DNA from: Gentiana macrophylla
Taxonomy: Eukaryota; Streptophyta; Magnoliopsida; Gentianales; Gentianaceae
Assembly (NCBI GenBank): GCA_026214975.1
Contig: JAOBSW010000523.1
Coordinates: forward strand, 124,001-188,000
Direction of reading: 5' to 3'
Length of the DNA: 64,000 bases
Shown piece after piece: positions 1-46,905 of the stretch; positions within the stretch are counted from its first letter, which is position 1; each line of letters opens with the position of its first letter. The translations under genes and the position numbers were made by a program. The notes below the pieces were generated by a model that did no database searches, was not told the DNA's origin, and saw only the letters and a program-made list of their open reading frames with translations.

Positions 1-660
1 TGAGGTTTCTACTGAGTTAACAGTATCCTCTGAAGCCTTTCCGATTAGCTCAGTCTTTTCTATTCCTGTTTTAATTATTTCTCTTTGGAACGTTGGTGGA
101 ATAGAGATGACCTTTTGACTTAAAGATTTTGTATTTATCTTATCCCTTTTCTCAATGACCTTTATTGATCCTGTGTAATAGGTTTTGTCGTTACTCATCT
201 CTTTATGTAAAGCTGAATGATGATACGATTTTTTCTTAGAATCAATAATTATCTTCTATGAAGAAATAGAAGAATCAAGAGAGTTTTCAAAAGGATAATT
301 GATGGAATTTTCATTTGCATAGATTTCGAACCATTGAGAGAATAGAATATTGACTCAATATTCGAAGATGAACTCATAGAACTTGTCTTGAACATACTGT
401 CTAGTTTTAAGGAAGTTTTTGAAAAATCATATTCTTTTCTCAAGGTTTTAATAAACACAAAAATCATTGCGAAGAAATTGTTTATCAGGTTTAAACTCTT
501 TATTATTCTTATGACTATTCAATTTTAGTAGTTTACCAATTGTAAATTGATAATCCTCTATATCAATATTTTCTCCGTTCGTTATCTTCCTAGTTAGATC
601 TACGAATAACGATCTTGAAACAGAATCAGACGAAGTAGAGCCAGAGTGGTGCGAATCCAT
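1..660 (-). pseudogene. Unit B, 5' end of polyprotein frame (inverted fragment)
   Basis: Read on the minus strand from the ATG at 660, it begins MDSHHSGSTSSDSVS, the start shared by all units here. It goes on into the B-type N-terminus (DLTRKITNGENIDIEDYQF) and then the linker module seen after MP in unit A. A frameshift lies near 450-470, where the frame changes from the 70-codon piece (448-660) to the 72-codon piece (249-467). Bases 1-248 keep the Ser/Thr/Lys-rich tail in broken frame. The unit is cut by the window edge. It is head-to-head with the next B unit. Function unknown; same family as the frame at 48207-49625. Confidence 0.75.
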
Positions 661-928
661 CTCTGCTTCTCAACCTATTATATGGGGCTTGTATTCTTAC
701 TACGGTCCTTGAACAAAATAAGGATAAACTGCCATCACTTGAGGACTTACTACACCTTCAGTACCATTCGGGGCAAATATGCTCGCAAGAACACAATCCT
801 TTCTACAACAAGGACGAGACGCAGACTGTACCAGACCTCTACACCACACAGGTGAATGCAGTTTATCCTTATTTTGTTCAGGGACCGTAGTAAGAATACA
901 AGCCCCATATAATAGGTTGAGAAGAGAG
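661..928. repeat. Head-to-head leader junction (inverted repeat)
   Basis: The last part of the viral leader (PBS to ATG) is present in inverted form from 661 to about 849 and in direct form from about 850 to 928, so two B units diverge from here. The inverted arm reaches to within about 20-30 bases of the PBS; the direct arm starts roughly 100 bases further downstream. The PBS itself is missing. There is no gene in this stretch. Confidence 0.75.
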
Positions 929-2318
929 ATGGATTCACACCACACTGGCTCTACTAAATCGATCTGCTTTCAAGATCGTTATTCGTAGATCTAACTAGGA
1001 AGATAACGAACGGAGAAAATATTGTTATATATGATTATCAATTTACGATTGGTAAAGCTGCTAAAATTAAAATTAAGCGATCCGAGAATAATAAAGAATT
1101 TAAACACGATAAACAATTCCTTCACAATAATTTTGTCTTGATTATAACCTTGAGAAAGCGAATATGGTTTTTCATAAACATCCTTCAAACTAGGCGGTAT
1201 GTTCAAGACAAGTTCTATGAGTTAAATCTTGAATATAGGTCAATATTCTATTCTTTCAATGGTTTGAAATCTATGCATATCAAAATTCCATCGACTATCC
1301 TTTTGAAAACTCTCTTGATTCTTCTATTACTTCCTGGAAATAATTATTGATTCTAAGAAAAAATCGTATCATCATTCAGCTTTACATAAAGCAATGAGTA
1401 ACGACAAAACCTATTACACAGAATCAATAAAGAAAGAATCCTATGTCATTAAAGAAAGGGATAGGATAAATACAAAATCTTTAGGTCAAAAGGCCATCCC
1501 TATTCCTCCAACTTGCCAAAGTGAAATAATTAGAATAGAAAAGATTGAGCCAATCAGAAAGGTTTCGGAGAAAAACTTTGTGGAAACCTCACAAGGCAAT
1601 CATTCCTTGTATGAACAGATGACTACTAGAGCAATTCTAGTTGAATCCACTCCTACAATGAATCCGTCTAAATCTATAAGTAATGATTCGTATGATGATA
1701 AGATAATTCTATCTCCAACACAATCGTTATTAACAAAATTGTCTATTGAGGAAACTGAGAAAGATTATACCAAAACAATAGTTCTAAAACAAGACACTAC
1801 TGAAACCCAAGAGTCTAGTAAGGGTCAATTGATTCCTACCAGCCAACGAGTTCCTCCTCGAAATCTCATCTAAACAACATCCATGTCTCAAAACGTGTAT
1901 GACAATAGTCTAGGATTTAATGTGAACAAAGGTTTCAATATTAACCAAATACATATTATGTCCACAAATCTAGACATGTTTATTGGAAACAAATTGGATC
2001 GTTTACAACAAAGTAATCCTGACAAGAAAATCTTGAAAGGATCTTTAAACATTATGAATGATTCATCTACATCAATTTTAAATCTTTATGTTTTCCGACC
2101 ACTTTTCATGTGAAAACATCATCCAATATTAGACCATTTTGGAAAGAAAGATTTCTGAAAAGATTATAATTTCTTTTAAAAAGTGATTTCGAAAGACACA
2201 AGGTTTTAAAAGACTACTTCTTTAAAACCCAAATATATTATGCTATCAGAGAAAGGGATGATCACAGTAATAATTATTTTTACTTAATCAATTTTTTTCA
2301 CATAGGAAATATATTAGA
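929..2318 (+). pseudogene. Unit B (copy B1a), N-terminal region and linker module, broken
   Basis: The ATG at 929 begins MDSHHTGSTKS but meets a stop at 986-988. Homology with the copy at 48207 continues through 1008-1350 (KRIWFF-type and QDKFYE-type motifs, shifted frames). It goes on in an open frame at 1394-1873 (159 codons, Ser/Thr/Lys-rich) and another at 1883-2113 (NVNKGFNINQIHIMSTNLDM). The module with the aromatic run NILFFQWFEIY matches the segment after MP in unit A. At least two frameshifts and one early stop separate the pieces. The role is unknown; by position it is the linker ahead of the capsid in A. Confidence 0.7.
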
Positions 2319-4433
2319 ATGTGTCTTAATAAGATATATAAAACCTCTATTTTTACTAATCTAAGAAATATTCGTCCATCTAACATAAAGGACATTATCC
2401 AAAGATTAGTTGGTCTACTTATGGGCACTAGTTATGATCTTTTTGAATATTGTTTAACAATCTATTTTGTTAACAAGTATATTTTCAAAGGATTTGACTT
2501 ATATAAAAGTCATACTAGACCAATCAAGGCTCTTTACAATGTGCGTCATAAATGGCTTGAAGGCGCTAATATAAATCTGCTAAATAGGTTGCGCGGTCAT
2601 GATAAATCCAAAACCTTCATAAATTAATTGTTTTTGGATATAATGAGAGATGAAGAAAGGATTATTCAAAATACAAAACCTCATAACATATGCAAAAACA
2701 AAATTCATCGTTCATACTATATTTGGAATCCCAAAAAAGGATTAAATGCTTTTCCTAGATCAAACAATACAACAAGGTGTTTAGGAAAATCGGGTAAGGA
2801 TACAAAAATATATTTTATTAAAAGATATTCAAAGTTATGTTTTAAGGTAATAAAAAACTTGTTACTCATTATCAATTTCATTCTTGTTTATGATCAGAGA
2901 GGAAGGCCTCTCGTCTACCTTATTCTAAAGGCATCTATACGAATTAATATATGTTCCAAAAAACGTCATTTTAAGGACATTAATAACCTTTACACCGACA
3001 TTATAAATATCTATACAAGAGACTATGTCAATACTTTAATAGAAACTTATGAAATGTTTTCTTTGAGAAAACTTGGATTAAATAAATATAAGATTCAAGT
3101 CTCAGAGTTAAACCAAAATGTTTCTTTAAGAAATACTTGTAACATTAATTCACTTCAAATATTATAAAATACTTATTAGCATCAATTCAAAGGTTCCGTT
3201 GGGAATAGCCATTAAACAACAGGCTAGGATTCCAAAGAACCATTTTATTGGGGAAAATGAAGAAGTGAATCAAGCCCTAAGATCCAGCAAAATTCTTCAA
3301 CTAGAATTACATCTCAATATCAACATGAATAGGTTTCTTGGCAAAAAAGTAATTAATATTCAGGAAATGGTACAACGAAACCATACACTATGCAAAGGTA
3401 ATAATCCTTTGATTTTCCAAAACAGATGTGCTTTACTTCCGAGGATCTATTCCCAATTAATTATAAAAATGCCAAAAGAAGCAAATCAAAAATTCAAGTT
3501 TCTTCAACTAAGGTTACACTTAAATATTTGTATAATAAACCTTATAAAAAAAAGCCCAACTGATTCAAATACTACTGGATTGGTTGAAAAACTATGGTTT
3601 ATTGCTTCATCCTGCCTTTATAGGTACTAAATTCGATAGACAACCACGATGTTGTCTAAAACAAATAATTAATACGGAGAAGCATACTCATCTTAAACAA
3701 TCCATATGGGAAATCCCCTCTGATCCTAAAAACATCCTTCTTCAATGTCATATGTTTCCTAACAAAAGTTCAATACGTGAAGTATATTTTCAAATATACA
3801 CAGCTTGGTCACTAGATTACTTAAAAGTTCATGGATCAATTTATATTCCTTTTCTTTGGGGTATTTATCGAACCAGTTTATTCATGAAACAAGATACGAA
3901 CATCCCTAAGGGGAAAATTGTTCGCCACAAGAAAGAACATAAAAAAATATGATAAAATTAAAAATTATATTCGATACGTACTACAGAAAAAGGATGATAT
4001 TTCAAAATATTCACTCCATTACATAAGTATTCAGAAATCTGTGAATACTTGGCTATTAATGAAATCTCGGATTCTATGTGGAAAATACATAAAATCCAGA
4101 TACTGGTTACGAAAGAAATTTGAAACCACATTCAAATATGAATGGGTTCAAAAGGGAAAGATATTACATCCATTTTCTTACAAAAAAATAAACACCTTCA
4201 TACAGATGGAATACAAGGAAGGGATGCCCCCACGACATCCAAAAGATATCATTTTAATATCCAAAAAAGAAAAAGATGAGTTGGTTAAAAATTGGAGGGG
4301 GTCCAATGAATTACATTACTATGTGGTTGTTAAGGGTCACAGACCAGGGATAAACAAAACATTGTCTCTTGCAGAAAAATCGTTCTCAGCCATAAACTCC
4401 CTTTTTTTTTTACAAATTCCCATCTTTAAATAA
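2319..4433 (+). pseudogene. Unit B (copy B1a), B-specific central region plus viroplasmin-like domain
   Basis: It takes the place that CP-PR holds in unit A. Open pieces run 2319-2627 and 2628-3167 (same frame, one stop), 3199-3630, 3584-3952 and 3918-4433. The protein is rich in Lys, Asn, Ile and Tyr, and I see no RT, protease, helicase or zinc-finger motif. The end of the last piece (about 4290-4433) contains YYVVVKGHRPGINKTLSLAE, a Cauli_VI/viroplasmin signature (G-x-x-P-G-I-x-K-T). The unknown protein therefore runs in frame into the TAV region. It matches 49626-51694 closely and 43392-45410 more loosely. I do not recognise the central protein. Confidence 0.6.
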
Positions 4434-4528
4434 AGCCGTTGAATTCCTAAGTAGAGTCCCACTGACTGACTACTTCATGGAAGATTCAATCAAAGAAGAA
4501 TTAATACAAAACAAAAAAAATTCTATCT

Positions 4529-5539
4529 ATGACAGGGGCTTCTCGGGAAAAGGGTGATATGACGAATAAAGAAATACAAACCTTTGGAGATTTTGTAGCA
4601 AAAGAAAGAACAAAAATGAGATACAAAGAAGAAGAACATGAGATACTTCTTCAAGTAAAAACCTTTTTCTTTCCTCACCAAAAAATTCAAAGTTTGCCAA
4701 ACTCCATTCAAGACCTTATCCTTGAAAAAACAAGAGAGAAGTTCGAAAAGAAGGAAGAAGATATTCATGACTTCCTCGACTTGTTATGGAAGAGAAGGCT
4801 CTATGTACCTGGAATAACCATTCAGCATGAGTACTATGTGAAGCATTGTCACATAGTACTATCTGAAGCATTGTCACTACAAACCATGTGGTGTACATTG
4901 GACTACAAAATCAACAAATGTGCAATTGATTTTGAAGTATTCCAGACATTTTATCCTGAGGGATTACCATTTGAAGGGAATATATTCACAATACAAACCC
5001 TGCTAGATTTTGGTCTAGTAGACTGGATTCTTTTCAAGACATATGGAAACCTTCTTGAACAAAGCAGCCTGGGGAAAACATTTGTTACCCTTGTCAAGAG
5101 ATTCCATATTGAAACATCACCCGGTGCATCATGGATCATTGATGACATTGATTCAAAATCCCCAGAATGGATTGGCGATAAAATCGAACCAGCATGCCAT
5201 GTAATATACCTCGAAAGAATACAAGAAAATCCACTTGAAAACTATCAGCTAGGTGAATATCATTATAATATGGATTGTATAATGACAAGAAGAGAACAAA
5301 TCAACAATTGGAGATCTAGAACCCTAGCTTTTGATTCATGGGAAGGACTCCATCTCCACAACTCTAAGATAAATAATAGGCTTGTCTTCAAAAATCTGAT
5401 ATACAAATTCTATGTAGAAGATCCCGACAATCCTATAAAAAATGTGTCTTATTCACCTAAAAAAGCAGAGACCAAGTATCATCAGCTTGTCAACCAGTAT
5501 AAATCTGAGGGATATGAACAAGAAGGGATAAATCGTTAA
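4529..5539 (+). CDS. TAV-like C-terminal protein of unit B (copy B1a), open
   Basis: An open frame of 336 codons. It is conserved in all A and B units (compare 11501-12475, 45729-46670, 51684-52793 and, inverted, 34231-35538). Conserved points are a proline/Phe start (FFPHQKIQSLPNSIQDLI), a charged helix (EKFEKKEEDIHDFL), ITIQHEYY, a Cys/His patch near residues 105-135 that is partly lost here, TIQTLLDFGLVDWILF, SPEWIGDKIEPA and a C-terminal NNWRSRTLAFDSWE block. It follows the viroplasmin-like domain, so by position it is the distal part of a gene-VI/TAV product, which in caulimovirids acts in inclusion bodies and translation of the pregenomic RNA. That role is inferred. The true start is probably upstream; Met 4529 is only the first Met after a frame break near 4400-4528. 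Confidence 0.6.
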   Translation: MTGASREKGDMTNKEIQTFGDFVAKERTKMRYKEEEHEILLQVKTFFFPHQKIQSLPNSIQDLILEKTREKFEKKEEDIHDFLDLLWKRRLYVPGITIQHEYYVKHCHIVLSEALSLQTMWCTLDYKINKCAIDFEVFQTFYPEGLPFEGNIFTIQTLLDFGLVDWILFKTYGNLLEQSSLGKTFVTLVKRFHIETSPGASWIIDDIDSKSPEWIGDKIEPACHVIYLERIQENPLENYQLGEYHYNMDCIMTRREQINNWRSRTLAFDSWEGLHLHNSKINNRLVFKNLIYKFYVEDPDNPIKNVSYSPKKAETKYHQLVNQYKSEGYEQEGINR

Positions 5540-5862
5540 TTATCCCTAATCACAAGAATAAACCATTTGAACAATATATATGTAGAATTATTCTATATAC
5601 TCCGATGGAATTACAAGAAAGCAGCAATTTGTTAAGCATGATTATTATCGATGGTAATGAAAAGTTACTACATCAAAATTACCATTTACAACACAAAATT
5701 TACTACCAAGGATATTTACAACATGGGACCCACATTTCCAACAAAATGATGTATCTTGCCATGCTAATTGCTAAAATCACTATATGGTATCATCATATCA
5801 AAGACTTAGAAAATATCACTATTCTACACTATTCATGACATACTATTTGCACCCAAAATTTT
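5540..5862 (+). other. 3' non-coding region of unit B
   Basis: An AT-rich stretch between the last stop and the TATA box. A 77-codon open frame at 5605-5838 lies here, but its start codon is absent from the matching stretch after 52793, so I do not call it a gene. The same stretch occurs, inverted, at 19895-20203. Upstream promoter elements are likely here, but I can name none. Confidence 0.5.
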
Positions 5863-5873
5863 CTATAAATAGG
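5863..5873 (+). promoter_or_regulatory. TATA box of pregenomic RNA promoter
   Basis: CTATAAATAGG, with the leader following. The same element occurs at 53119-53129, while the A units and B2 carry CCTATATAAG instead. Its place just after the last ORF is that of the caulimovirid full-length transcript promoter. Confidence 0.6.
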
Positions 5874-5879
5874 AAGGGT

Positions 5880-7212
5880 TAGAAGACATGAAGAAAGGAG
5901 GCAAAAATAGAGAGTCAAAAGAGAGAGAGAAAGCTAGAGAAAGAAAAAAAAGTTTTCTTTGAAGAAAACCTCCAACTCTTTTCTTGTTTCCAACTTCCAA
6001 ATTTCTTCTTTCAATACTATAAATCTTTGTAATGTTCTTGATTGATCTTTCTTCTATACTATAAAGAAGATAGATTCAACTTGAACTTTGATCTTTAAGT
6101 TGAGGTTAAGTCCAACTTGGACTTTTTTTTTGAAGTTTGGTTCCACTTGGAACTTGTATGACAACTCCGGTGAGTGGTGGTTTCCGGCAACCGGTAGTCA
6201 AAGTTTCAGATCTACTACTCTTCTGTAAAGATCTACTATTCTTCTATAAAGGTAGCTTCTTTACCTAAATACCATCATCTAATACATGTGGTTGCGATTA
6301 TAAGCACCATATTTTTCTTTTCTTTTTCTGTTTTCCGGACATCTGTCAAAGTCATATATGTCTATCGCTACGCGGACTACCGCATGAGATAAACGTGCCT
6401 CCGACGAATGAACAGTTGTTTCCGTTAACAGACTACTTACTGTTCCGCGAGATCTGTGGTGACTCTTTCAAATAAGATTGGGGGTTCTCACGATCGTTTA
6501 ATACTATTCCGTCCAACTGGTCCTTAATCCAGTTGTTACTTTTTTGTCATTTTATTTTTTGTTATTTTTTTGTCATTTTATTTTTGTCATTTTATTCTTG
6601 TTATTTTATTTCAGTTTTTTATTTCTATTATTTTATTTTATGTTTATGCAACTAATCCACTAAGTTATCTTCTCAGTCGTGATTATAGTATATATTATTA
6701 TTATATTATATATATATATATACACTACTTATAATATAAAAAATATAAAAAACTTAAAAATATAAAAAAGAATTTTAGTAATTACCGACATATTTACAAT
6801 TCATATTTATATTTATTATTCCGCTGGGTTATCTTCCCAGCTGGGCTCATAACTCGTCATCTTCCAGTTTATTGTTTATGTTCTTACGTTCTTTTTAATT
6901 TTTGTACTTACTAATTGTATCTTTATATATCGTTCTATATCCATATCATTCCCCATCCCATTGTCCCCCCTTGCCCGATCATTGTGGCCGTTCTGGTATC
7001 AGAGCCACGAGGGGGTAGTGTTGTGTGTGGTGTAGAGGTCTGGTACAGTCTGCGTCTCGCCCTTGTTGTAGAAAGGATTGTGTTCCTACGAGCATATTTG
7101 ACCCGAACGGTATAAAAGGTGTAGTAAGTCCTCAGGTGAAGGCAGTTTATCCTTTTTTTGTTCAGGGACCTAGTAAGAATACAAGCCCCATATAATAGGT
7201 TGAGAAGCATAG
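5880..7212 (+). promoter_or_regulatory. Pregenomic RNA leader with chain of short hairpins
   Basis: About 1.3 kb with no gene. Perfect or near-perfect short inverted repeats follow one another: GTTTTCTT/AAGAAAAC (5952-5969), AAGTCCAA/TTGGACTT (6108-6124), GTTCCA/TGGAAC (6140-6153), CAACTGG/CCAGTTG (6514-6535) and GCTGGG/CCCAGC with loop TTATCTT (6823-6841), plus a weaker AACTCG/CCAGTT pair with loop TCATCTT (6852-6870). A run of TTGTTATTTTATTTT-like repeats (6538-6640) and a short (TA)n tract (6709-6724) lie between. Caulimovirid leaders are structured and carry short ORFs that allow ribosome shunting; a chain of small hairpins would be a variant of this. The leader recurs at 12660, 18880, 46920, 53130/62340 and, inverted, 20204/33284. 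Confidence 0.65.
6994..7006 (+). other. Primer-binding site (tRNA-Met), minus-strand start
   Basis: TGGTATCAGAGCC, the caulimovirid PBS complementary to the 3' end of initiator tRNA-Met. It occurs once per unit and lies about 207 bases before the MP start codon. Confidence 0.85.
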
Positions 7213-8307
7213 ATGGATTCGCACCACTCTGGCTCTACTTCGTCTGATTCTGTTTCAATTCAGTCTAGTAATCGTTCAACTAAGATAATAAACAGTGAAG
7301 AATACGTCATAGAAGATTTTAATGAGTCAATTGATAATTGGAAAATTCCTAAGGTAAGTAAAAAACATATCTATAAACCCTGGTGTCCAATCATATCTGA
7401 TTATACCGTTAAAACAGAAGAAAGGGGTATACAAATACAAAACCCCTCTGAAACTATTAGCCTACTAACTCCCAAAACCATACAAAAACACAGGGAACGA
7501 AAGTATGGATACATAAATATTGGTTTAGTTCAGGTTGGAATTAAACCCCTCACAAAAGAAGGCTTAAATACTTCTATTCTGGTTATGCTCAGGGACGCTA
7601 GGCATACAAGCTATGAAGATTCCCTTCTCAGTTCAATTGAGTCCAGTCTTTGTACAGGACCTATATCTTTTAATTGTTTTCCAAACCTATCAGTATCACT
7701 CTCAGACAAAAATGTTCTTGAAAGTCTAGTCTTGCAAATAAAGACTCATAATTATAGTATGATTGAAGGATCTATACCTATTGCAATCATTTATAGAGTC
7801 TACTACAAGACTATGATGACAGCTTTTACAACTAGAGCAAGAAATACATGTCCAAAAGGCTCAACCCTTTTATTACAGACATACTTCTCTCGTGCAAATG
7901 CTAATATCCCTAGAACTATTCAATGGAAAGAAATAACTATTCCAGATGAATGGTTCCTCGCAGGCGAAACCAAACCACCTTCTAGTAACAACTTAAGGCC
8001 GAACAATCAACTTAGTTATGTTACAGAATATGGAGATGGAAGAATCGGTATTTCTTTTAGAAAATCCCAAAGTGTTAAGTATCCCGAAGACCTCACTGAA
8101 TCAAGTACTACTGATTTAAGAAGAGTTTCTCAAATTAATACACTAATTAAGCGTAGAAGATCAATTTCCATTATACCAAATTCTCATATAAGAAAGGTTG
8201 ATTATTCGGGTGAAATACTAAGACCTTTTTATACATTTGAAACCGACACTGAAATACCTTCTACTCTTGATGCTCCTTCTAGCCCGACTTATTCTTCTGT
8301 ATCATAA
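7213..8307 (+). CDS. MP: Movement protein, N-terminal part of unit A polyprotein (copy A1)
   Basis: A 364-codon open frame. Residues about 98-215 fit the caulimovirid branch of the 30K movement-protein superfamily: a beta-rich start (YINIGLVQVGIKPL), the conserved Asp in LVMLRDAR (D128), DSLL (136-139), FPNLSVSL and AIIYRVYYKT. Such proteins form tubules or gate plasmodesmata for cell-to-cell spread. The N-terminus is Ser-rich. The frame ends at TAA 8305-8307. The A2 copy has a sense codon (GAA) there and the reading continues in the same frame to 8763, so the ancestral product was a longer polyprotein and this stop is probably a mutation. The start is the first ATG after the PBS and is shared by every unit. 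It is the best-preserved MP in the window. Confidence 0.88.
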   Translation: MDSHHSGSTSSDSVSIQSSNRSTKIINSEEYVIEDFNESIDNWKIPKVSKKHIYKPWCPIISDYTVKTEERGIQIQNPSETISLLTPKTIQKHRERKYGYINIGLVQVGIKPLTKEGLNTSILVMLRDARHTSYEDSLLSSIESSLCTGPISFNCFPNLSVSLSDKNVLESLVLQIKTHNYSMIEGSIPIAIIYRVYYKTMMTAFTTRARNTCPKGSTLLLQTYFSRANANIPRTIQWKEITIPDEWFLAGETKPPSSNNLRPNNQLSYVTEYGDGRIGISFRKSQSVKYPEDLTESSTTDLRRVSQINTLIKRRRSISIIPNSHIRKVDYSGEILRPFYTFETDTEIPSTLDAPSSPTYSSVS

Positions 8308-8970
8308 AATATCGGGGAAAGGATCAATGTTCTAGAAAAGGAATTTAGAGTCAACAAAAAGTTTTTTCATGATGATTTTGTGGCTGAACATAATCGCCAC
8401 AAAAGATTATGGTTCTTAAAAAACTTTCTAGAAATAAGGCAAAACATCCAAGAACAATTTTATAATTTTGTGATAAAACATAAGGTTAATATATTGTTCT
8501 TCAATTGGTTTAAAATATATTGCTCGGAGAATTCTATTGACTATCCCTTAAAAAATATAGCTAATCCAGTCTTAGAGAAAAAAGGAGTTACGGAATGGGA
8601 GGCAAAAAATAGCACCAAAAAAGTCCTGTCAAAACACCCAACTTTCCAAGAAATACTATTACCATTAGGAGAAAGAAAGGTTGAAGCAGTACCTATTAAT
8701 GACCCTTTAGAACCAAATAGGAAAAGTATTGTATCACAAATAAATTTTACCAATACTTACTAGGAGCTATAGGAAAACAAATTGAAGGAATAGAAAGTCT
8801 TGTTCAAACCCATTCAGTCATAATTAATAATCCAAACAAAGAGATTTTAATTAAGAATATTAAATCCCAAGGCACTATGTTTAAACCTTACCGATCTCCT
8901 CAAAAGGAAACAATGAGTATACAGGAAGTAGCTCTACCTACATCATCCCAGATACTCCTGAACGATCCCT
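8308..8970 (+). pseudogene. Linker module between MP and CP (copy A1), broken
   Basis: It stays in the MP frame up to a stop at 8761-8763 (127 codons after the first Met at 8380). That stop results from a one-base loss relative to A2. It contains KRLWFLKNFLEIRQ and NILFFNWFKIY, which match the B units (KRIWFFKNFLKTRQ, NILFFQWFEIY); this is the block shared between A and B. The segment after it (ITFTNTY-like, then GKQIEGIESLVQ near 8765-8810) looks like the short coiled-coil often found ahead of caulimovirid CP. Function unknown. Confidence 0.65.
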
Positions 8971-8989
8971 AGGAAAGAGAATAAACACT

Positions 8990-10536
8990 TTGAAACATAT
9001 TACAAATGATGAGTACCAATCATTTAAAGAAACTAAAGATCAGGTTAATAAGATCGAGTGGGACTCGGTCCTAGATCTTAGTATTGCTAAACCAGTGTCC
9101 CAACCTCAGTTCAGTAGTGACTCGATCTATGACAGGAATATCAATGGAAAATCAGAATATGAATTCATAAGTATACTACAACAAATGACAATGTATGCTA
9201 ATGCATTTAGGACAAATAATGGCCAAATTAGTGATAAAAGTATAGCAGAAATGATTATATCTGGCTTCTCCGGACAGCTAAAAGGATGGTGGGATTTCTA
9301 TTTAACACCTATAAACCAGACTTCCATTATTAACGTTGTTAAGCTCAATACGAAAGGGGAGGCTACTATGGATCCTGAAGGATTTTCCCAATCAAATTCG
9401 GTTGATGCTCTAATACTTGCGATTTCCTTACATTTCATAGGAGATCCGTCCCATATTAGAGATAAAAATCTTTGAATTCTTGGCAAATCTAAGATGCAGA
9501 AAACTTAGTGATTTTCTGGATTACAAGAATACTTTCTTAACCAGAATAATGCTAAGGGAATATTCTAATCAACCTTTTTGGAAAGAAAAGTTCTTAGCCG
9601 GTTTGCCTAATCTTCTTGGAGAAAAGGTTAGAAATAAGATAAGAGAAAATTGTGGAAAACAAATTATTCCTTATGATGATTTTACATATGGTCAATTAGT
9701 TTGTTTTACCCAACAAGAAGGTTTAAAGATATGTCAAAATTTAAAACTCCAGAAACACCTTAAGAGAGAACTAAAACAAACTAAGAAGGAATTAGGTAAT
9801 TTATGTCAACAATTTGATATTTACTCACAACAACCAGTCAAAAAATGCAAAGAGGAGGGTGGTTGTAGTACAAATAAAACACCCCCAAAATATCATTTCA
9901 CAACAAGAAAAAAAAGAATCTAGGGCGAAATTCCAAGATAAGGGTTACTACCGTAATAATCCTTCATGGGAGAAAAAATTTGAAGTTAAATACAAAGATA
10001 TTGAATGCTACAAATGCCATAAGAAAGGACACACTGCAAATTACTGTAGACTTAATAAAAGGCAACATGAATTAAACCTAGAAGAGGAATTAACAAATAA
10101 AATATCCCTCTTGCTTAATGATACAAACACTGATTCCTTTGATATAGAAAAGTGTATTCAGCAAGATGATATGCTCTCCTCTAGTACGGACTCAGGAGAA
10201 CATATCAATGTTCTTACAAAAAACCAAGAGTTCTGGTTAGAAGGATCAAAAAATATATTTGATTCTAGCATTTTTCAAAACTATCTTAAAAAAATCCTTG
10301 ATCCCTTTAAAAATATGGATCATATAGAACCAAGGCAACATTATGATCTAACAGAAATTCTCAAATTAAGACCAAAGCTTGATATTACAAATGATATTCA
10401 GAATAAGCTAAAAGATATTAGACTAGAAATAATCTCTTTTAAAGAATCTCAGGATCAAGAGATTGGTTTCATAAAAGATACTCTCTCAAAAATAGACCAT
10501 CCAGAAAAGAAGAAAATACCAGATACATTCCTATGA
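8990..10536 (+). pseudogene. CP: Coat protein with zinc knuckle (copy A1), frameshifted
   Basis: Three open pieces in three frames: 8990-9475, 9480-9923 and 9814-10536. The first has GFSGQLKGWWDFYLTP (residues about 92-107), the hallmark of caulimovirid capsid proteins. The second has the second capsid half (LRCRKLSDFLDYKNTFLTR, GLPNLLGEKVRNKIREN). The third has the CCHC knuckle CYKCHKKGHTANYC near 10008-10050, preceded by a basic region, and then an acidic tail. The role is packaging of the genome. Two frameshifts, near 9476 and 9900, make this copy non-functional. Confidence 0.85.
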
Positions 10537-10551
10537 TTTAAAGAAATAGTC

Positions 10552-10993
10552 GTGAGAAAATATTTGGTAAAAATCACTATCCAATTTTCTGAATGTGTCA
10601 AAATTGATACTATCGCACTCTTTGATACGTGCGCTGACCTAAATTGTATTCAACTAGGTTTAGTACCTGAAATTTTTAGGGAAACAACCATAGATCAATT
10701 ATCAGCCGCTGGCAATTCCAAGTTACACATCGATGCCAAAACTGAGGCCTCAATAGTAAAAAAATGGATTTTTATTTAAAACAACTTTCATGCTTGTGAG
10801 AAATATAAACCATACAGTAATCTCAGGAACACCATTTATTTCTTTGATTACTCCTTATACTGTTGGGATGAATTCCATTTCATTTGATGTCATGAATGAA
10901 ACCATACAATTTAAATTCCTTGAAACATCTGGGGAAATTAATATGCAGAACAAAAATTCTGTTCAGAGTCTTGTACAAAATAAAGGCTTCTGA
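10552..10993 (+). pseudogene. PR: Aspartic protease domain (copy A1), mutated
   Basis: Pieces at 10552-10779 and 10790-10993 are split by a one-base gain in an A-run near 10760. The catalytic motif reads FDTCADLNCIQ, so the Gly of D-T-G is Cys (codon 10630-10632, TGC; the A2 and A3 copies have Gly). ISGTPFI, the later flap/hydrophobic motif, is in the second piece. Retropepsin-type proteases cleave the viral polyprotein. After this domain an RT-RNase H would be expected. Instead, after one stop (10991-10993, TCA in A2), the same frame enters the TAV region. Confidence 0.8.
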
Positions 10994-11038
10994 AAGAGAA
11001 AATTATCAATAAATCTTGTCTCCAATAATTTATCACAG

Positions 11039-12475
11039 ATGGAGTCATGCTTCAAGGAAGTAACAAAATATCAAAGTACCACAGACAAAAAATTAACACA
11101 AGACCATCAAAACCTTATTGATCAACTTTATCAAAACAGGGAAGATGAGGCTATACACTATAAGTGTCTAAAGAGTCTTGAAGAATACTTTGTTACTAAA
11201 AGTAACTTTGCATGTTTTGTAATACTAAAGGGTAAAGCCCCAGGAATCTACAAAACATGGTCACTAATAAAAGACTCATTAAATGTTCCTGATCCTGAAT
11301 ATTATGGATTTCATACATTAAAAGGAGCTAAAAATTTAGCATCCAAAAATCTACAAAAAAATTACTACATAGAGGATATCATCAAAAACATCGATGACTA
11401 TCCTGAAATAAAGTTGCTACGCTTTGAAAGGCACTAGTTAAAAAAAGGTTGTCTAAAACTTGAAAGACATGTTCTTGAACTCAAAAACAAGTTCACACAT
11501 ATGGAGGAGTCATCTACAAAGACTCTTAACCCATCAAGAATGTTCTTCTTCCACAACCGAGAAATTGTCGTTTTACCTGAACCAATACAAGATTACATCT
11601 TCCAAAAGGTTCACGAGACTTTTGAAAAAAAGGAAGAACGAATCCATGAATTCCTCGATGACATCTTGTATAACAAGATCAAAGTACATGGCATATACGT
11701 CCAACAAGAGTTCAGTTATAGCAGGACAGGCACATGTGCAAACGGTTGCAATCCAGATTTCTGCAGATGTACACTTGAATATAAAGTAAATTTGTGCATC
11801 ATTAACGCCTGGCTATTTCATGCTTATCACAAAGAAGATATTTGGTACAAGGGTGAAAAATTTACAATCCAAACTCTCCTTGACTTTGGGGTAATTAAAC
11901 AAATTATTATCTCATCCAGTGAAGACCTTTCTCAGTACAGTTGGTTGGGGAAGACATTTAAAGAGGTGATTACCAAATACAAATAAATGATTAAATAACA
12001 TTACATCTTGGTAAGGATCACTTCAAAATCTCCAGAATGGATCAAACACGTGTTTGAACCATCAATACATCTGGTGCTTGTGGAAGGATGCTCAAATACG
12101 GATTTTATCCAAAGCCATGTCCTGATAAACAAAGATCACAAAGCACATTGCAAGGGCACCCTCCGAGAAAAAATCAACAGATGGAGAAGTACTAACCTTG
12201 CATTAAATTTCAATGAATGCAAAATACTTCAAAACTATATGACAGATAACATTGTTGTATATCAAAACCAAATATACAAAATCTACACTATAAGTACATT
12301 TACAAAAGTAAGAAGCAGGATGTACACCATCATCAAGGCCAGAACAAACTTGCCAGAGTTGGTAGAAAAATATAAGGCTGAAGAATATGCTGCAAGAAAC
12401 AGAAGAATGATACCACAACCAATCTTCTTGGGCAATGATAACGATTTCGATAAAGATGGTTCATCCCTGGAATGA
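11039..12475 (+). pseudogene. TAV/viroplasmin-like protein (copy A1), two stops
   Basis: A single frame with stops at 11435-11437 and 11984-11986. The viroplasmin-like (Cauli_VI) domain is at about residues 58-105: CFVILKGKAPGIYKTWSLIK then GFHTLKGAKNLA. The rest matches the TAV C-terminal block of the B units: IQDYIFQKVHETFEKKEERI, a Cys cluster (TCANGCNPDFCRCTLEYK), TIQTLLDFGV and SPEWIKHVFEPS. The family (gene VI) makes inclusion bodies and helps translation; its N-terminal fold resembles the RNA/DNA-hybrid-binding domain of RNase H1. It lies directly downstream of and in frame with the protease, with no RT between. Confidence 0.78.
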
Positions 12476-12634: not shown

Positions 12635-12642
12635 TATATAAA
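12635..12642 (+). promoter_or_regulatory. TATA box of unit A promoter
   Basis: TATATAAA in the context AACCGCCTATATAAACAAGG. The 160 bases before it (12476-12634) hold no gene; they share ACATGGGACCCATG and AAGTAAAAGATACATG with the other A units. Confidence 0.65.
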
Positions 12643-13473
12643 CAAGGCTTGGGGACTCAGTCAAGGGAGGAGGCAAAATAGGGAGGCAAAATAGAGAGGC
12701 AAAATAGAGAGAGAAAGCTAGAGAAAGAAAGAAAGTTTTCTTTTTAGAAAACCTCCAACTCTTTTCTAGTTTCCAACTTCCAAATTTCTTCTTTCAATAC
12801 TATAAATCTTTGTAATGTTCTTGATTGATCTTTCTTCTATACTATAAAGAAGATAGATTCAACTTGAACTTTGATCTTTAAGTTGAAGTTAAGTCCAACT
12901 TGGACTTGTTTTTGAAGTTTGGTTCCACCTGGAACTTGTATAACAACTCTGGTGAGCGGTGGTTTCCGGCAACCGGTAGTCAAAGTTTCAGATCTACAAC
13001 TCTTCTGTAAAGATCTACTATTCTTCTATAAAGGTAGCTTCTTTACCTAAATACTATCATCTAATACATGTGGTTGCGATTATAAGCTCCACCTTTTCTT
13101 TTCTTTTTCTGTTTGCGGGACATCTGTCAAAGTCATACATGTCTATCGCTACGCGGACTACCGCATGAGAAAAACATTTCTCCGACGAATGAACAGTTGT
13201 TTCCGTCAACAGACTACTTACTGTTCCGCGAGATCTGTGGTGACTCATTCAAATAATATTGGGGTTCTCATGATCGTTTAAAACTGTTCCGTCCAACTGG
13301 TCCTTAATCCAGTTGTTACTTTTTTGTTATTTTAATTTTTGTTATTTTATTGTTGTCATTTTATTTTTGTTATTTTATTTACATTTATTTTATTTTATGT
13401 TTATACAACTAATCCATCTTTGAGTTATCTTCTCAATGTGATGATTATATATTATATTATTATTATATTATAT

Positions 13474-13478
<5 letters not shown>

Positions 13479-13520
<42 letters not shown>
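13479..13520. repeat. (TA)n microsatellite in leader
   Basis: About 21 uninterrupted TA units at the same leader position as the tracts at 6709, 19660, 47683 and 62862. Confidence 0.9.
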
Positions 13521-13527
<7 letters not shown>

Positions 13528-13793
13528 TACTTATAATTTAAAAAAATAAAAAATATAAAATATAAAAAAGAAGTTCGGTATTTACCGACATATTTACTAT
13601 TCATATTTATATTTATTATTCCACTGGGTTATCTTCTCAGCTGGGCTCATAACTGGTCATCTTCCAGTTTATTGTTTATGTTCTTACTTTCTTTTTAATT
13701 TTTGTACTTATTAATTGTATCTTTATATATCGTTCTATATCTGTATCATTCCCCGTACCGTTGTCCCCCCTTGCTCGATCACTGTGGCCGTTC

Positions 13794-13806
13794 TGGTATC
13801 AGAGCC
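13794..13806 (+). other. Primer-binding site (tRNA-Met)
   Basis: TGGTATCAGAGCC, identical to that at 6994. The distance from that site, 6800 bases, gives the length of one A unit. Confidence 0.85.
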
Positions 13807-14013
13807 ACGAGGGGGTAGTGTTGTGTGTGGTGTAGAGGTCTGGTACAGTCTGCGTCTCGTCCTTGTTGTAGAATGGATTGTGTTCTTGCGAGCATATTTG
13901 CCTCGAACGGTACAGAAGGTGTAGTAAGTCCTCAGGTGAAGGCAGTTTATCCTTATTTTGTTCAGGGACCGTAGTAAGAATACAAGCCCCATATAATAGG
14001 TTGTGAAGCAGAT

Positions 14014-14934
14014 ATGGATTCGCACCACTCTGGCTCTACTTCATCTGATTCTGTTTCAATTCAGTCTAGTAATCGTTCAACTAAGATCATAAACAGTGAA
14101 GAATACGTCATAGAAGATTTTAATGAGTCAATTGATAATTGGAAAATTCCTAAGGTAAGTAAAAAACATATCTATAAACCCTGGTGTCCTATGATATCTG
14201 ATTATACCGTTAAATCAGAAGAAAGGGATATACAAATACAAAACCCCTCTGAAACTATTAGCCTACTTACTCCCAAAACTATACAAAAACACAGGGAACG
14301 AAAGTATGGATACATAAATATTGGTTTAGTTCAGATTGGAATTAAACCCCTCACAAAAGAAGGCTTAAATACTTCTATTATGGTTATGCTCAGGGACGCT
14401 AGGCATACAAGCTATGAAGATTCCCTTCTCAGTTCAATTGAGTCCAGTCTTTGTACATGACCTATATCTTTTAATTCTTTTCCAAACCTTTCAGTATCAC
14501 TCTCAGACAAAAATGTTCTGAAAATTCTAGTCTTGCAAATAAAGACTCATAATTATAGTATGCTTGAAGGATCTATACCTATTGCAATCATCTATAGAGT
14601 CTACTACAAGACTATGATGACAGCTTTTGCAACTAGAGCAAGAAATACATGTCCAAAAGGCTCAACCCTTTTATTACAGACAGACTTCTCTCGTGCAAAT
14701 GCTTATATCTCTAGAACTATTCAATGGAAATGCAAAACTATTCTTGATGAATGGTTCCTCGAAGGAGAAACAAAACCACCTTCTAGTAACAACTTAAGGC
14801 CGAACAATCAACTTAGTTATGTTACAGAATATGAGGATGGAAGAATCGGTATTTCTTTTGCAAAATCCCAAAGCGTTATGTATCCCAAAAACCTCACTAA
14901 ATCAAGTACTATTGATTTAGGAAGAGTTTCTTAA
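14014..14934 (+). pseudogene. MP: Movement protein (copy A2), two nonsense codons
   Basis: Nearly identical to the A1 MP and in one frame. There is a TGA at 14458-14460 (GGA in A1, after LCT) and a TAA at 14932-14934 (CAA in A1). Conserved LVMLRDAR-like (here IMVMLRDAR) and AIIYRVYYKT blocks are kept. Not functional as a full protein. Confidence 0.85.
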
Positions 14935-15749
14935 ATTAATACACCAATTAAGCAAAGGAGATCAATTTCTATTATACCAAATTCTCATATAAGAAAGGTT
15001 GATTATTTGGGTGACACTGAAATACCTTCTACTCATGATGCTCCTTCTAGCCCGACTTATTCTTCTGTATCAGAAAATATCGGGGAAAGCATCAATGTTC
15101 TAGAAAGGAATTTAGAGTCAACAAAAAGTTTTTTCATGATGATTTTGTGGCTGAACATAATCGCCACAAAAGATTATGGTTCTTAAAAAACTTTCTAGAA
15201 ATAAGGCAAAACATCTAAGAACAATTTTATAATTTTGTGATAAAACATAAGGTTAATATATTGTTCTTCAATTTGTTTAAAATATATTGCTCAGAAAATT
15301 CTATTGACTATCCCTTCAAAAATATAGCTAATCCAGTCTCAGAGAAAAAAGGAATTACATAATGGGAGACAAAAAATTGCGCCAAAAAAGTCCTGTCAAA
15401 ACACCCACCTTTCCAAGAAATACTATTACCATTAGGAGAGAGAAAGGTTGAAGCAGTACCTATTAATGACCCTTTAGAACCAAATAGGAAGAGTATTGTA
15501 TCACAAATAAATTTTACCAATACTTACCTAGGAGCTATAGGAAAACAAATTGAACGAATAGAAAGTCTGGTTCAAACCCATTCAGTCATAATTAATAATC
15601 CAAACAAAGAGATATTAACTAAGAATATTAAATCCCAAGGTCCTTTGTTTAAACCTTACTAGATCTCTTCAAAAGGAAACAATGAGTATACAGGAAGTAG
15701 CTCTTCCTACATCATTCCAGATACTCCTAAACGATCTCTAGGAAAGAGA
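14935..15749 (+). pseudogene. Linker module between MP and CP (copy A2), broken
   Basis: Homologous to 8125-8970, with several short indels and stops; a 29-base stretch of A1 (near 8212-8240) is missing. At 15072-15074 the codon is GAA where A1 has its MP-ending TAA, which is why I think A1's stop is secondary. Confidence 0.6.
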
Positions 15750-16880
15750 ATGAACACTTTGAAACATATTACGATTGATGAGTACCAACCATTGAAAAAA
15801 CTCAAAATCAGGTCAATAAGATCGAGTGGGACTCTGTCCCAGATCATAGTATTGCTAAACCAGTGTCCCAACCCCGGTTCAGTAGTGACTCGATCTATGA
15901 CTAGAATATCAATGGAAAATCAGAATATGAAATCATAAGTGTACTACAACAAATGACAATGTATGCTAATGCATTTAGGACAAATAATGGCCAAAATAGT
16001 GATTTTTTGGATTACAAGAATACTTTCTTAACCAGAATAATGCTAAGGGAAGATTCTAATCAACCTTTTTGGAAAGAAAAGTTCTTAGCTGGTTTGCCTA
16101 ATCTTAAGAGAGAACTAAAACAAACTAAGCACGAATTAGGTAATTTCTATCAAAAATATGATATCAACTCACAACAACCAGTCACAAAATGCAAGGAGGA
16201 GAGTGGTTGTAGTACAAATAAAACACCCCCAAAAGATCATTTCACAACAAGAAAGAAAGAATCTAGGAAGAGATTCCAAGATAAGGATTACTACCGTAAT
16301 AACCCTTCGAGGAGAAAAAATATGAAGGTTGATACAAAGATATTGAATGCTACAAATGCCATAAGAAAGGACACACAGCAAATTATTGTAGACTTAATAA
16401 AAGGCTACATGATTTAAACCTAGAAGAGGAATTAACAAATAAAATATCCCTCTTGCTAAATGATACAAACACTGATTTCTCTGATATAGAAAAGTGTATT
16501 CAGCAAGATGTTATACTCTCCTCAACTACGGACTCAGGAGAACATATCAATGTTCTTACAAAAAACCAAGAGTTCCGGTTAGGAGGATCAAAAGATATAC
16601 ATGATTCTAGCCTTTTTCAAAACTATCTTGAAAAAAATCCTTGATCCCCTTAAAATTATGGATCATATAGAAAAAAGGAAACCTTATGATCTAACAGAAA
16701 TTCTCAAATTAATACCAAAGCTTGATATTACAAATGATATTCAGAATATGCTAAAAGACATTAGACTAGAAATAATCTCTTTTAAGGAATCTCAGGATTA
16801 AGAGATTGGTTTCATAAAAGATACTCTCTCAAAAATAGACCATCCAGAAAAGAAGTAAATACCAGATACATCCCTAAGAT
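15750..16880 (+). pseudogene. CP: Coat protein (copy A2), two internal deletions
   Basis: Pieces 15750-15938, 15953-16417, 16453-16644 and 16601-16801. The LKGWWDFYL block is gone: compared with A1, bases equivalent to about 9236-9512 are missing, and the deletion ends lie at AGTGAT copies. A second loss corresponds to about 9615-9761 and ends at CTT copies. The zinc-knuckle region (CYKCHKKGHT in A1) is frameshifted near 16330-16390. Clearly inactive. Confidence 0.8.
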
Positions 16881-16898
16881 TTAAAGAAATTCGTAAGA

Positions 16899-17330
16899 AA
16901 ACATTTGGTAAAAATCACTATCCAATTTTCTAAATGTGTCAAGATTGATACTATCGCACTATTTGATACAGGCGCTGACCTAAATTGTATTCAACCAGAT
17001 TTAGTACCTAAAAATTTTAGGGAAAGAACCATAGATCAATTATCAGCCGCTAACAATTCCAAGTTACACATCGATGCCAAAACAGAGGCCTCGATAGTAA
17101 AAATGGATTTTTATTTAAAACAACTTTTGTCCTTGTTAGAAATATAAACCATACAGTAATCTTAGGAACCCCATTTATTTCTTTGATTATACTGTTGCGT
17201 TGAATTCCATTTTATTTGATATTATGAATGAAACCATACAATTTGAATTACTTGAAACATCTGGGGAAATTAATATAAAGAACAAAAATTATGTTCAGAG
17301 TCTTGTAAAACATAAAGGCTTCAGAAAGAA
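16899..17330 (+). pseudogene. PR: Aspartic protease domain (copy A2)
   Basis: An 80-codon piece at 16905-17147 keeps the intact catalytic motif FDTGADLNCIQPDLVPKNFR. The frame is lost after the A-run near 17100-17140, then continues degraded to a join with the TAV region, again with no RT in between. Confidence 0.78.
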
Positions 17331-17370
17331 AAAATTATCAATAAATCATGTCTCCACTAAATTATCATAG

Positions 17371-18700
17371 ATGGAGTCATGCTCCAAGAAAGAAACAAAA
17401 TGTCAAAGCGCCACGGACAAAAAATTAGCACAAGATCACCAAAACCTTATTGATCAACTTTATCAAAATAGGGAAGACAAGGTTGGACACTATAAGTGTC
17501 TACAGAATCTTGAAGAATACATTGTTACTAAAAGTAACTTTATCTATTTTGTGATACTAAGGGGTAAAACCCCAGGAATCTACAAAACATGGTCATTAAT
17601 AAAAGACTCAATAAATGTTCATGATCCTGAATTTTAGGGATTTCATACATTAAAAGAAGCAAAAGCTTTAGCATCCAAAAGGCTGCAAAAGGATTACTAC
17701 ATTGAAAATATCATAAAAAACATCGATGATTACCCAAAAATAAAGTTGCTACGCTTTGAAAGACACTTATTAAAAATAGAGTGCCTAAAACTTGAAAAAC
17801 ATGTTCTTGAACTCAAGAACAAATTAACACATATGGATGAGTCGTCTACAAAGACTCTTAATCCAGCAAGAATGTTCTTCTTTACCAACCGTCAGATTGG
17901 TGGTCTACCTGAAAAAATCCAGGACTGCATCTTTCAAAAGGTCTACAAAAGTTTTGAAGAAAAAGAGGAATGGATCCATAGGTTCCTTGAGGAAATCCTA
18001 CAAAACAAAATCAAAGTCCATGGTATATATATCCAACAGGAATTCAGAAGAAGCACATGTAGGAATGGTTGTAAAGTGATATCTCTGTGGTTTGCAAATT
18101 GAATATAAAATAAACTTGTGCACCATTGATGCCTGGCTATTTTATGCTTATCACAAGGAGGGAGTTAAATATAGAGGTGAAAACATTACAGTCCAAACCC
18201 TATTTGACTTTGGAGTTGTTAGCCAAATCGTCATTCCATCCAGCGAAGACCTTTCACATTTCAGTTATTTGGGGAGAACATTCAAGAATGCGATCATCAA
18301 ATACAAAGGGCTAGTCAACAAGGTCCACATCTTGATAAGAATCATTTCGAAATCTCTAGAATGGGTCAAACAAGTATTTGAACCGTCAACACAACTAGTA
18401 CTCATTGAAGGCTACTCGCGTACTGATCTTATCCAAAGCATGATCCTGGTCAACAGAAAACATCATGAACCTCGTAAAGGTACTCTCATAATTAACATCA
18501 ATCGCTGCAAATTTACACGGCATGCAAATTTACAAAAATAAGAAATAGGATGTCTACACACATTGAGGCCAGGACCAACTTCCCAGAGCTAGTAGAAAAA
18601 ATTTAAAACTGAGGAAAGGGCAACAAGGTGTATAACCTCACAACCAATCTTCATGGACAATGATAGCGATTATGAGAGTGATGATTTAACTCTGGGATGA
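17371..18700 (+). pseudogene. TAV/viroplasmin-like protein (copy A2)
   Basis: Pieces 17371-17637, 17746-18102 and 18092-18541. The viroplasmin motif FVILRGKTPGIYKTWSLIKD is intact. A TAG at 17635-17637 (Tyr in A1) cuts it, and a frameshift lies near 18075-18100 at the Cys cluster (CRNGCK). A deletion near 18510-18540 removes part of the C-terminal block. It otherwise matches A1. Confidence 0.75.
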
Positions 18701-34048: not shown

Positions 34049-34056
34049 CTTATATA
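34049..34056 (-). promoter_or_regulatory. TATA box of unit A3 (minus strand)
   Basis: The minus strand reads TATATAAG in the context CCGCCTATATAAGCACACC, as in the other A units. The stretch 34057-34230 is the A-type 3' region with no gene. Confidence 0.65.
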
Positions 34057-34230
34057 GGCGGTTGGGTGCCAGATAGGTCCAAATATGAATAGTAATCGAA
34101 TCTTTCTTTTACTATTTGAACAGTAAAAGTCATGATATAATGGACGACATGGGTCCCATGTATCTTTTACTTGTCAACTAGTCACAGTAAATTTTGTTTT
34201 TATTGAGCACTTTTTACCAATGTTAAAAGA

Positions 34231-35568: not shown

Positions 35569-35586
35569 AAGATGGTCAAGCAGGTT

Positions 35587-46897: not shown

Positions 46898-46905
46898 TAT
46901 ATAAG
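46898..46905 (+). promoter_or_regulatory. TATA box of unit B2
   Basis: TATATAAG in GCACCCAACTGCCTATATAAGC: this is the A-type promoter, not the CTATAAATAG of the B1 copies. The 227 bases before it (46671-46897) hold no gene. Confidence 0.65.

What the first reader, a model, noticed from the sequence alone, without database searches (positions are those of the whole stretch)
929..12475. Two viral components with shared ends and an exchanged centre
Units A and B share the leader, the PBS, the first 15 residues (with weaker likeness to about residue 45), the linker module after MP, and the TAV end. A has MP and CP-PR; B lacks the MP core and has an unknown protein in place of CP-PR. Three B copies plus a start fragment, and three A copies plus a start, show the same plans, so neither is a one-off decay product. 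The simplest readings are a multipartite pararetrovirus whose RT is on a further component, or RT-less satellite-like genomes that use a helper. From memory, a bipartite plan has been proposed for some endogenous florendoviruses; I do not know of one with this layout.
Basis: partly seen in the sequence, partly recalled or inferred. Interest (0 to 1): 0.9.

Follow-up and report, generated by a model that had tools for sequence, protein, structure and literature searches.

The report
RT-less twin components of plant pararetrovirus
Plant DNA holds fossil copies of two partner viral units that share one control region but carry different genes, neither with a reverse transcriptase of its own that could be found, and one of them lacks nearly every standard gene of its virus family.

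Summary
The window has an array of endogenous caulimovirid units of two plans. A (3 copies plus a start) encodes MP, DUF7588, coat, protease and a transactivator (TAV). B (3 copies plus a start fragment) shares the first residues, DUF7588 and a TAV end, but no MP, CP, PR or RT was found in it; its centre is a long open frame without known relatives. Leaders are mostly 91-96% identical and do not sort by type, while TAVs are only 36-38% identical in the longest alignments, so B is not a recent deletion of A. New here: B1/B3 promoters are at chance level against A's, and identity starts 30-50 nt past the TATA box (blurred in B3), as leader exchange by template switching would leave. B's centre is kept open (0 stops in 771 codons; 11 of 14 B2/B3 indels are multiples of three) with little amino-acid constraint. 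The host genome could not be searched (tool did not complete), so a third RT component versus a helper virus stays open. Bipartite florendoviruses and non-autonomous pararetroviruses are published; a component lacking MP, CP, PR and RT appeared in no paper I saw.

The parts
1..850 (-). B start fragment (leader end, start codon at 660 with intact 15-residue start, B amino-terminal region), head-to-head with B1
   Evidence: 28-741 matches 1570-849 inverted
849..928 (+). B1: surviving 3' end of the shared leader
   Evidence: alignment of 3 B and 4 A starts
929..1347 (+). B1: start codon, damaged shared N-terminus, DUF7588-homologous region
   Evidence: blastp of 1000-1347 to A3 38187-38549, 42% over 59 aa, E 5e-14; Pfam DUF7588 itself not scored in B1
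1319..2110 (+). B1: linker after DUF7588
   Evidence: stop-to-stop frames
2274..3949 (+). B1: central region, no known family, frame broken by shifts
3888..5536 (+). B1: TAV end
   Evidence: 36-38% aa to A1 and A3 TAV in the two alignments over 150 aa; model of 4529-5536 matches caulimovirid TAVs; Cauli_VI only weak in B1 (E 0.089)
5864..5870 (+). B1 TATA box (B1/B3 promoter class)
5896..7212 (+). shared leader between B1 and A1, PBS core at 6994
7213..8307 (+). A1: N-terminus plus MP
   Evidence: PF01107 E 1.4e-21; 58 relatives, best listed 53% identity over 93% of the query
8380..8763 (+). A1: DUF7588 and linker
   Evidence: PF24496 E 4e-16
8990..9923 (+). A1: coat region (DUF7746, Caulimovir_coat_dom)
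   Evidence: PF24925 E 1e-26, PF22909 E 1e-14
9814..10536 (+). A1: coat end with zinc knuckle below cut-off
   Evidence: PF00098 E 0.28
10550..10990 (+). A1: protease region by collinearity with A3
   Evidence: A1/A3 alignment; RVP scored only in A3 35587-36156
11039..12475 (+). A1: TAV end
   Evidence: Cauli_VI E 1.2e-6; alignment
12635..14013 (+). A1 TATA box and shared leader, PBS core at 13794
14014..18640 (+). A2: second A copy (deletion in the coat region; TAV of another lineage)
   Evidence: MP, DUF7746 and Cauli_VI scored
18859..19895 (+). A2 TATA box and truncated leader
33284..34199 (-). A3 promoter and part of its downstream leader
34231..39550 (-). A3: third A copy; DUF7746, coat, RVP and Cauli_VI scored, MP by collinearity with A1
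39768..40778 (+). B2: leader end, start codon 39980, DUF7588
   Evidence: PF24496 E 2.6e-14
42641..43113 (+). B2: linker resumes after a 1.9-kb insertion
43095..45407 (+). B2: intact 771-codon central frame
   Evidence: 0 stops against 65 and 73 in the other two frames of the strand; no Pfam match
45411..46667 (+). B2: TAV end, same frame as the centre; three single stops including the one before it
46898..48206 (+). B2 TATA box and shared leader before B3
48207..49622 (+). B3: intact 15-residue start, DUF7588, linker
   Evidence: PF24496 E 3e-9
49559..51271 (+). B3: central frame, 1 stop in 571 codons
51506..52790 (+). B3: TAV end with Cauli_VI
   Evidence: PF01693 E 5.6e-7
53120..53388 (+). 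B3 TATA box and leader, interrupted by an LTR retrotransposon
62340..63998 (+). leader resumes (PBS core 63171) and A4 start (start codon 63391)

Best explanation
The array is a fossil of two non-autonomous caulimovirid components that replicated together. A supplied movement protein, coat protein, protease and a transactivator. B supplied a second transactivator and a DUF7588 protein, joined by a long fast-changing central stretch. Both RNAs began with the same leader, so one reverse transcriptase, supplied in trans by a partner not seen here, could prime and copy both. First-strand cDNA made on the leader of one RNA could jump to the end of the other, which kept leaders alike while bodies and (for B1/B3) promoters diverged. 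DNAs of both kinds were joined through the leader and captured in the host genome. Shown: two plans, shared leader edges, diverged bodies, TAV in both, no viral RT in the frames scanned. Inferred: trans-supplied RT, co-packaging, template switching, and B serving mainly as a transactivator source.
For: Two plans repeated in mixed tandem order. Leaders do not sort by type: 3' blocks average 0.928 within type (12 pairs) and 0.918 between types (16 pairs), while A and B TAVs are 36-38% identical in the four alignments over 150 aa and DUF7588 regions of B2/B3 are 51-62% identical to A's in the alignments confined to it. In the 120 nt before the TATA box, B1 or B3 against A is 0.55-0.57 (6 pairs; shuffled mean 0.52, 95% 0.56), A-A 0.93-0.97, B1-B3 0.92; in the MAFFT alignment B1/A identity rises from 0.12-0.39 at 5876 to 0.78-0.90 at 5913, 12 to 49 nt past the first T of the TATA box. 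A is constrained: dN/dS about 0.28 in MP (233 codons); TAV of B 0.45 (222 codons). TAV fold in B: 15 BFVD matches at E<=0.001, 13 with names, all 13 viruses that I know as caulimovirids; Cauli_VI in B3. Central frame kept: 0 stops of 771 in B2, 1 of 571 in B3, 11 of 14 B2/B3 indels multiples of three (P 7e-4 at chance 1/3) against 3 of 13 and 2 of 9 in leaders. No Pfam match in any frame of the B2 centre and no DD pair in its open frame.
Against: The clean promoter/leader edge rests on one B lineage (B1 and B3 are close relatives); B2's core promoter is partly A-like (0.63-0.90 in the last 40-nt windows against A2 and A3; 0.60-0.62 over 120 nt). Past the edge a short purine-rich repeat varies in length, so fixed windows +30 to +89 do not rise above shuffled sequence in B1/A3, B3/A1 and B3/A3 (3 of 6 pairs), and B3 reaches over 0.9 only about 100 nt past the TATA box. 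The transcript start is not mapped; a start about 30 nt after the TATA box is recalled. The downstream edge at codon 15, about 250 nt past the PBS, is not explained by first-strand transfer. B2/B1 indels do not show the frame bias (6 of 15; B1 is more decayed). Centre dN/dS 0.69 is not clearly below one off frame (0.75). The TAV model has low confidence (pLDDT 53, TM-scores 0.32-0.42 by query length). All copies come from one locus. No RT partner was seen.
Confidence: 0.62

Rival explanations
1. B is a satellite or parasite (a sub-case of the best explanation): it uses proteins of A and of an autonomous helper virus, gives nothing needed in return, and its centre is filler that keeps genome length and an open frame through to the TAV.
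For: The centre has no relative by protein search, in IMG/VR or, for its first half, in PDB, no predicted fold for that half (pLDDT 36), near-random composition in two of its three thirds and weak amino-acid constraint, yet stays open.
Against: B keeps a constrained TAV and a DUF7588 region; open frame and frame-preserving indels suggest a translated product; B and A longer copies are equal in number here, 3 and 3.
Confidence: 0.35
2. A true three-part virus (the other sub-case): a third component with the same leader and start carries RT-RNase H, and A, B and C are all needed.
For: A matches the domain content of the published RT-less component B of bipartite florendoviruses, whose partner carries RT; B is a stable additional plan.
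Against: No RT unit among the 8 whole or partial units of this window; host genome not searched.
Confidence: 0.27
3. A and B are deletion products of one ordinary genome, made before or after integration.
For: Shared ends with missing middles are what deletions give.
Against: B's centre has no convincing match to A by blastp (best E 0.002, 22.6% over 146 aa without composition correction) or by profile comparison with A coat; TAV and DUF7588 of B are far diverged from A's; the codon-15 junction is the same in B1 and B3; B2/B3 indels in the centre keep the frame.
Confidence: 0.08
4. The B centre is a decayed or very divergent reverse transcriptase, so B is simply the known RT component.
For: Size and place would suit RT-RNase H of component A in bipartite florendoviruses.
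Against: No Pfam match in the open frame of B2 or its five other frames with stops masked; no DD pair in 771 residues, so no catalytic motif of the known kind.
Confidence: 0.04

Closest known systems
Bipartite endogenous florendoviruses, components A and B (Geering 2014, PMC4241990; passages and part of section 4 read)
   Same: RT-less component with MP, CP, AP and an ORF2-like carboxy end; unit spacing 6.2-6.8 kb here, components of 5.5-6.9 kb there; intergenic region over 90% identical between components there, mostly 91-96% here; compound insertions; Met-tRNA primer site.
   Different: There the partner carries RT-RH1. Here no RT, MP, CP or PR was found in partner B, and its centre is unknown. 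The carboxy end here scores as Cauli_VI/TAV, while a review reports no TAV homologue recognisable by BLAST in florendoviruses (PMC5902531, passages).
Non-autonomous pararetroviruses eRTBVL2, ePVCVL, ePVCVL2 of grasses (Chen 2017, PMC5491270; Discussion and passages read)
   Same: RT-less species with an unknown domain (SFKTE) in the place of RT; control region homogenised between partners while other parts diverge.
   Different: Those RT-less species keep MP, CP and PR. The authors report that similarity patterns did not fit primer sites and polypurine tracts and favour DNA recombination; here the B1/A upstream edge sits near the expected transcript start. The SFKTE string and close variants do not occur in any frame of the window; their domain sequence was not at hand for a real comparison.
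Satellites and multipartite ssDNA viruses with common regions (recalled; concerted evolution in nanoviruses is mentioned in Chen 2017)
   Same: Shared control region, exchanged gene content.
   Different: Different replication: reverse transcription, not rolling circle.

Membership tests
Caulimoviridae | 30K movement protein | tested here: met
   A only: PF01107 E 1.4e-21, A2 E 1.9e-8; not found in B frames scanned
Caulimoviridae | coat protein and retropepsin | tested here: met
   A only: PF22909, PF24925, RVP in A3
Caulimoviridae | RT-RNase H1 | tested here: not met
   none in the A and B frames scanned (not every frame of every copy); the RT_RNaseH hits lie in LTR-flanked elements
Caulimoviridae | Met-tRNA PBS in a long leader | tested here: met
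   core at 6994, 13794, 63171; motif recalled
Florendovirus (tentative genus) | monophyly in AP-RT-RH1 tree | not testable with these tools
   no viral RT-RH found in the window
Florendovirus (tentative genus) | ORF2 protein of the florendovirus type | not tested
   no reference ORF2 sequence at hand; the C end here is TAV-like
Bipartite florendovirus | RT-less component with MP-CP-AP plus C extension | tested here: met
   unit A
Bipartite florendovirus | partner component with RT-RH1 | tested here: not met
   none in unit B; a further component elsewhere is untested
Non-autonomous pararetrovirus pair | control region homogenised between partners with diverged bodies | tested here: met
Caulimovirid TAV/viroplasmin | TAV fold / Cauli_VI domain in the C end of B | tested here: met
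   Cauli_VI in B3 E 5.6e-7, weak in B1, none in B2 45411-45647; BFVD matches for B1, model pLDDT 53

The most novel reading that the evidence does not exclude
A three-part reverse-transcribing plant virus in which one component (B) is a dedicated transactivator carrier with a frame-locked but otherwise free central stretch, and in which the components keep one leader by jumping of leader cDNA from RNA to RNA at the cap site.
Probability: 0.25. Interest if true: 0.85.

Novelty: new variant of a known kind. Interest (0 to 1): 0.6.

Why it matters
Divided genomes are rare among reverse-transcribing viruses, and the published cases seen here pair an RT-less component that keeps MP, CP and PR with an RT-bearing partner. 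A component with none of MP, CP, PR or RT, kept over the divergence of at least two B lineages, would mean that gene loss in these viruses went further than reported, down to a leader, a DUF7588 region and a transactivator. If more loci confirm the edge near the transcript start, it would give a direct reason why partners keep identical leaders: they are exchanged as cDNA during reverse transcription, which would also show co-replication.

Tried and rejected
Hidden RT in B: Pfam on the six frames of the B2 centre and a DD scan of its open frame: rejected. B centre as diverged coat: profile comparison: no similarity, though each profile holds only four sequences. B relatives elsewhere: protein searches with the centre and with B3 48411-49622 gave none. 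The second miss is weak, because that query has a DUF7588 which proteins in the same database carry; the word filter did not reach them. IMG/VR scans with MP, TAV, coat and centre: none. TAV model against PDB: nothing at E<=0.001. Composition test for codingness: too weak alone; of 12 whole pieces 4 exceeded the 95% line (A1 MP, A1 9814-10536, A3 CP, B1 TAV), so other true coding pieces failed it too, and of three thirds of the B2 centre one exceeded it. Leader fold: z -1.9 for one stretch, not pursued. SFKTE string: absent. Genus placement: no RT, not decided.
Full report
WHAT IS THERE. The window holds a cluster of endogenous pararetrovirus units: a B start fragment on the minus strand (1-850) head-to-head with B1 (849-5900), then A1, A2, a broken leader, a 13-kb LTR retrotransposon, A3 on the minus strand, B2 head-to-head with A3, B3, a second LTR retrotransposon, and an A4 start. 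Units follow one another through the leader in mixed order (B-A-A; B-B-A). Spacing between equivalent leader points is 6283 for B1, 6801 for A1 and 6209 for A2, which carries a deletion.

UNIT A. Pfam finds MP, DUF7588, DUF7746, Caulimovir_coat_dom, a zinc knuckle below cut-off, RVP (scored in A3) and Cauli_VI. MP has 58 relatives at E<=0.001 in the protein collection; the best is 53% identical over 93% of the query, and named ones include proteins from Citrus sinensis, Cicer, Eutrema, Brassica and Populus. A1 against A3 shows in-frame dN/dS of about 0.16-0.8 in MP, coat and protease windows and 0.55-0.93 towards the TAV end. In the cleaner count where A1 equals A2 it is about 0.28 over 233 MP codons.

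UNIT B. The first 15 residues are those of A, intact in B3 and in the start fragment, damaged in B1 and B2; the switch to B-specific sequence lies at nt ~7257 of A1. DUF7588 scores in B2 and B3 and is seen by blastp in B1. The MP core is missing. The end is a TAV: 36-38% identical to A's in the four alignments over 150 aa, 34-50% in shorter pieces over 80 aa; Cauli_VI in B3 (E 5.6e-7), weak in B1 (0.089), not in the B2 piece; and a model of the B1 end (pLDDT 53, pTM 0.52) with 15 BFVD matches at E<=0.001, of which 13 carry names, all from viruses that I know as caulimovirids and mostly called transactivator or inclusion-body protein. The PDB gave nothing at that level. No B frame scanned matches MP, CP, PR or RT.

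THE CENTRE OF B. In B2 a frame of 771 codons has no stop while the other two frames of the strand have 65 and 73; the longest run in 2000 simulated sequences, both strands, is 167. In B3, whose first 1.2 kb of centre is about 85% identical to B2's, the same frame has 1 stop in 571 codons against 51 and 48; B1, with frameshifts, has 18, 31 and 51 of 558. B2/B3 indels are multiples of three in 11 of 14 cases (P 7e-4 at chance 1/3), against 3 of 13 and 2 of 9 in the leader; B2/B1 shows only 6 of 15. Amino-acid constraint is weak: dN/dS about 0.69 over 369 codons, with 1.60 and 0.75 in the off frames. Two of its three thirds cannot be told from random sequence purged of stops, but that test also fails for some true coding pieces. 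The model of the first half has no fold (pLDDT 36). No relative was found and no likeness to A coat. I infer that the frame was translated while the virus lived; what the product does is unknown, and I think it a fast-changing accessory or spacer segment between DUF7588 and TAV.

THE SHARED LEADER. Over six 5' blocks identity is 0.92-0.96 (15 pairs). Over eight 3' blocks it is 0.91-0.96 apart from the 7 pairs with B1's short damaged stub (0.85-0.92); the mean is 0.928 within type (12 pairs) and 0.918 between types (16 pairs), so leaders do not sort by component. In the 120 nt before the TATA box A1, A2 and A3 are 0.93-0.97 alike, B1 and B3 0.92, and B1 or B3 against A 0.55-0.57, about the level of shuffled sequence (mean 0.52, 95% 0.56; shuffles of B1 and A1). 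B2 against all others is 0.60-0.62 over 120 nt, but 0.63-0.90 like A2 and A3 in the 40-nt windows next to the TATA box, so B2 does not show the clean edge. For B1 against A the MAFFT identity rises from 0.12-0.39 to 0.78-0.90 between 12 and 49 nt past the first T of the TATA box; by eye a common AGGAGG-type motif starts 30-33 nt past it in 5 of 6 copies. A purine-rich repeat of varying length follows, which delays the rise in B3 to about 100 nt and keeps 3 of 6 fixed-window comparisons at shuffled level. Transcription would be expected to start near this edge (recalled, not mapped here). A shared block that starts at the cap site is what first-strand transfer of leader cDNA between RNAs would leave. 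The downstream edge at codon 15, about 250 nt past the PBS, needs a further step.

WHY NOT DELETION PRODUCTS. Bodies of A and B have diverged far more than leaders, the centre of B has no convincing match to A, B1/B3 have their own promoter, and two B lineages keep the plan (TAV 66-67% nt between B2 and B1/B3).

WHAT IS KNOWN. Geering 2014 (PMC4241990; passages, part of section 4) describes bipartite florendoviruses: component A with RT-RH1 and ORF2, component B with MP-CP-AP and an ORF2-like extension, intergenic regions over 90% identical, compound insertions. Chen 2017 (PMC5491270; outline, passages and Discussion) describes non-autonomous pararetroviruses whose control regions are homogenised by recombination, and argues mainly for DNA-level exchange because similarity patterns did not fit primer sites and polypurine tracts. 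A review (PMC5902531, passages) states that no TAV homologue is recognisable by BLAST in florendoviruses. Passages of PMC10377300, PMC9719215, PMC5766536 and PMC13308828 were also seen. I saw no paper with a component that lacks MP, CP, PR and RT together (ten search listings; most subscription journals are not held).

LIMITS. One locus; no host genome (genome search did not complete); genus not assigned; RT source not seen; not every frame of every copy was scanned for domains; codon counts are simple site counts that mix virus-time and post-integration changes, although restricting to sites where two copies agree removes part of the latter.

Noticed in passing
20388-33284 and 53389-62339: Two LTR retrotransposons inserted into viral leaders: LTR pairs 97% and 96% alike, target-site duplications read by eye as ATACT and ACCTG; gag, protease, RNase H and below-cut-off integrase in the second, RNase H in the first.
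   Followed up: partly
11300-12130 and 17650-18455: A1 and A2 are mostly 91-98% alike up to about 10900 but drop to 68-81% in the TAV end with third-position excess: a TAV swap between virus lineages.
   Followed up: partly
7213-7900 and 38900-39550: A1 and A3 are 91-96% alike over the leader end and first part of MP, then 56-80%: a recombination edge inside MP.
   Followed up: no
45029-45193: 54-nt tandem repeat, 3.1 copies, inside the B2 centre.
   Followed up: no
40778-42640: 1.9-kb insertion in B2 of unknown type with a 37-nt tandem repeat of 5.2 copies near its end.
   Followed up: no
19895-20194: 300-nt B-type TAV-end fragment, inverted, where two arrays meet.
   Followed up: no
45411-46667: In B2 the TAV is in the same frame as the centre, separated only by single stops, so centre and TAV may have been one polyprotein.
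   Followed up: partly
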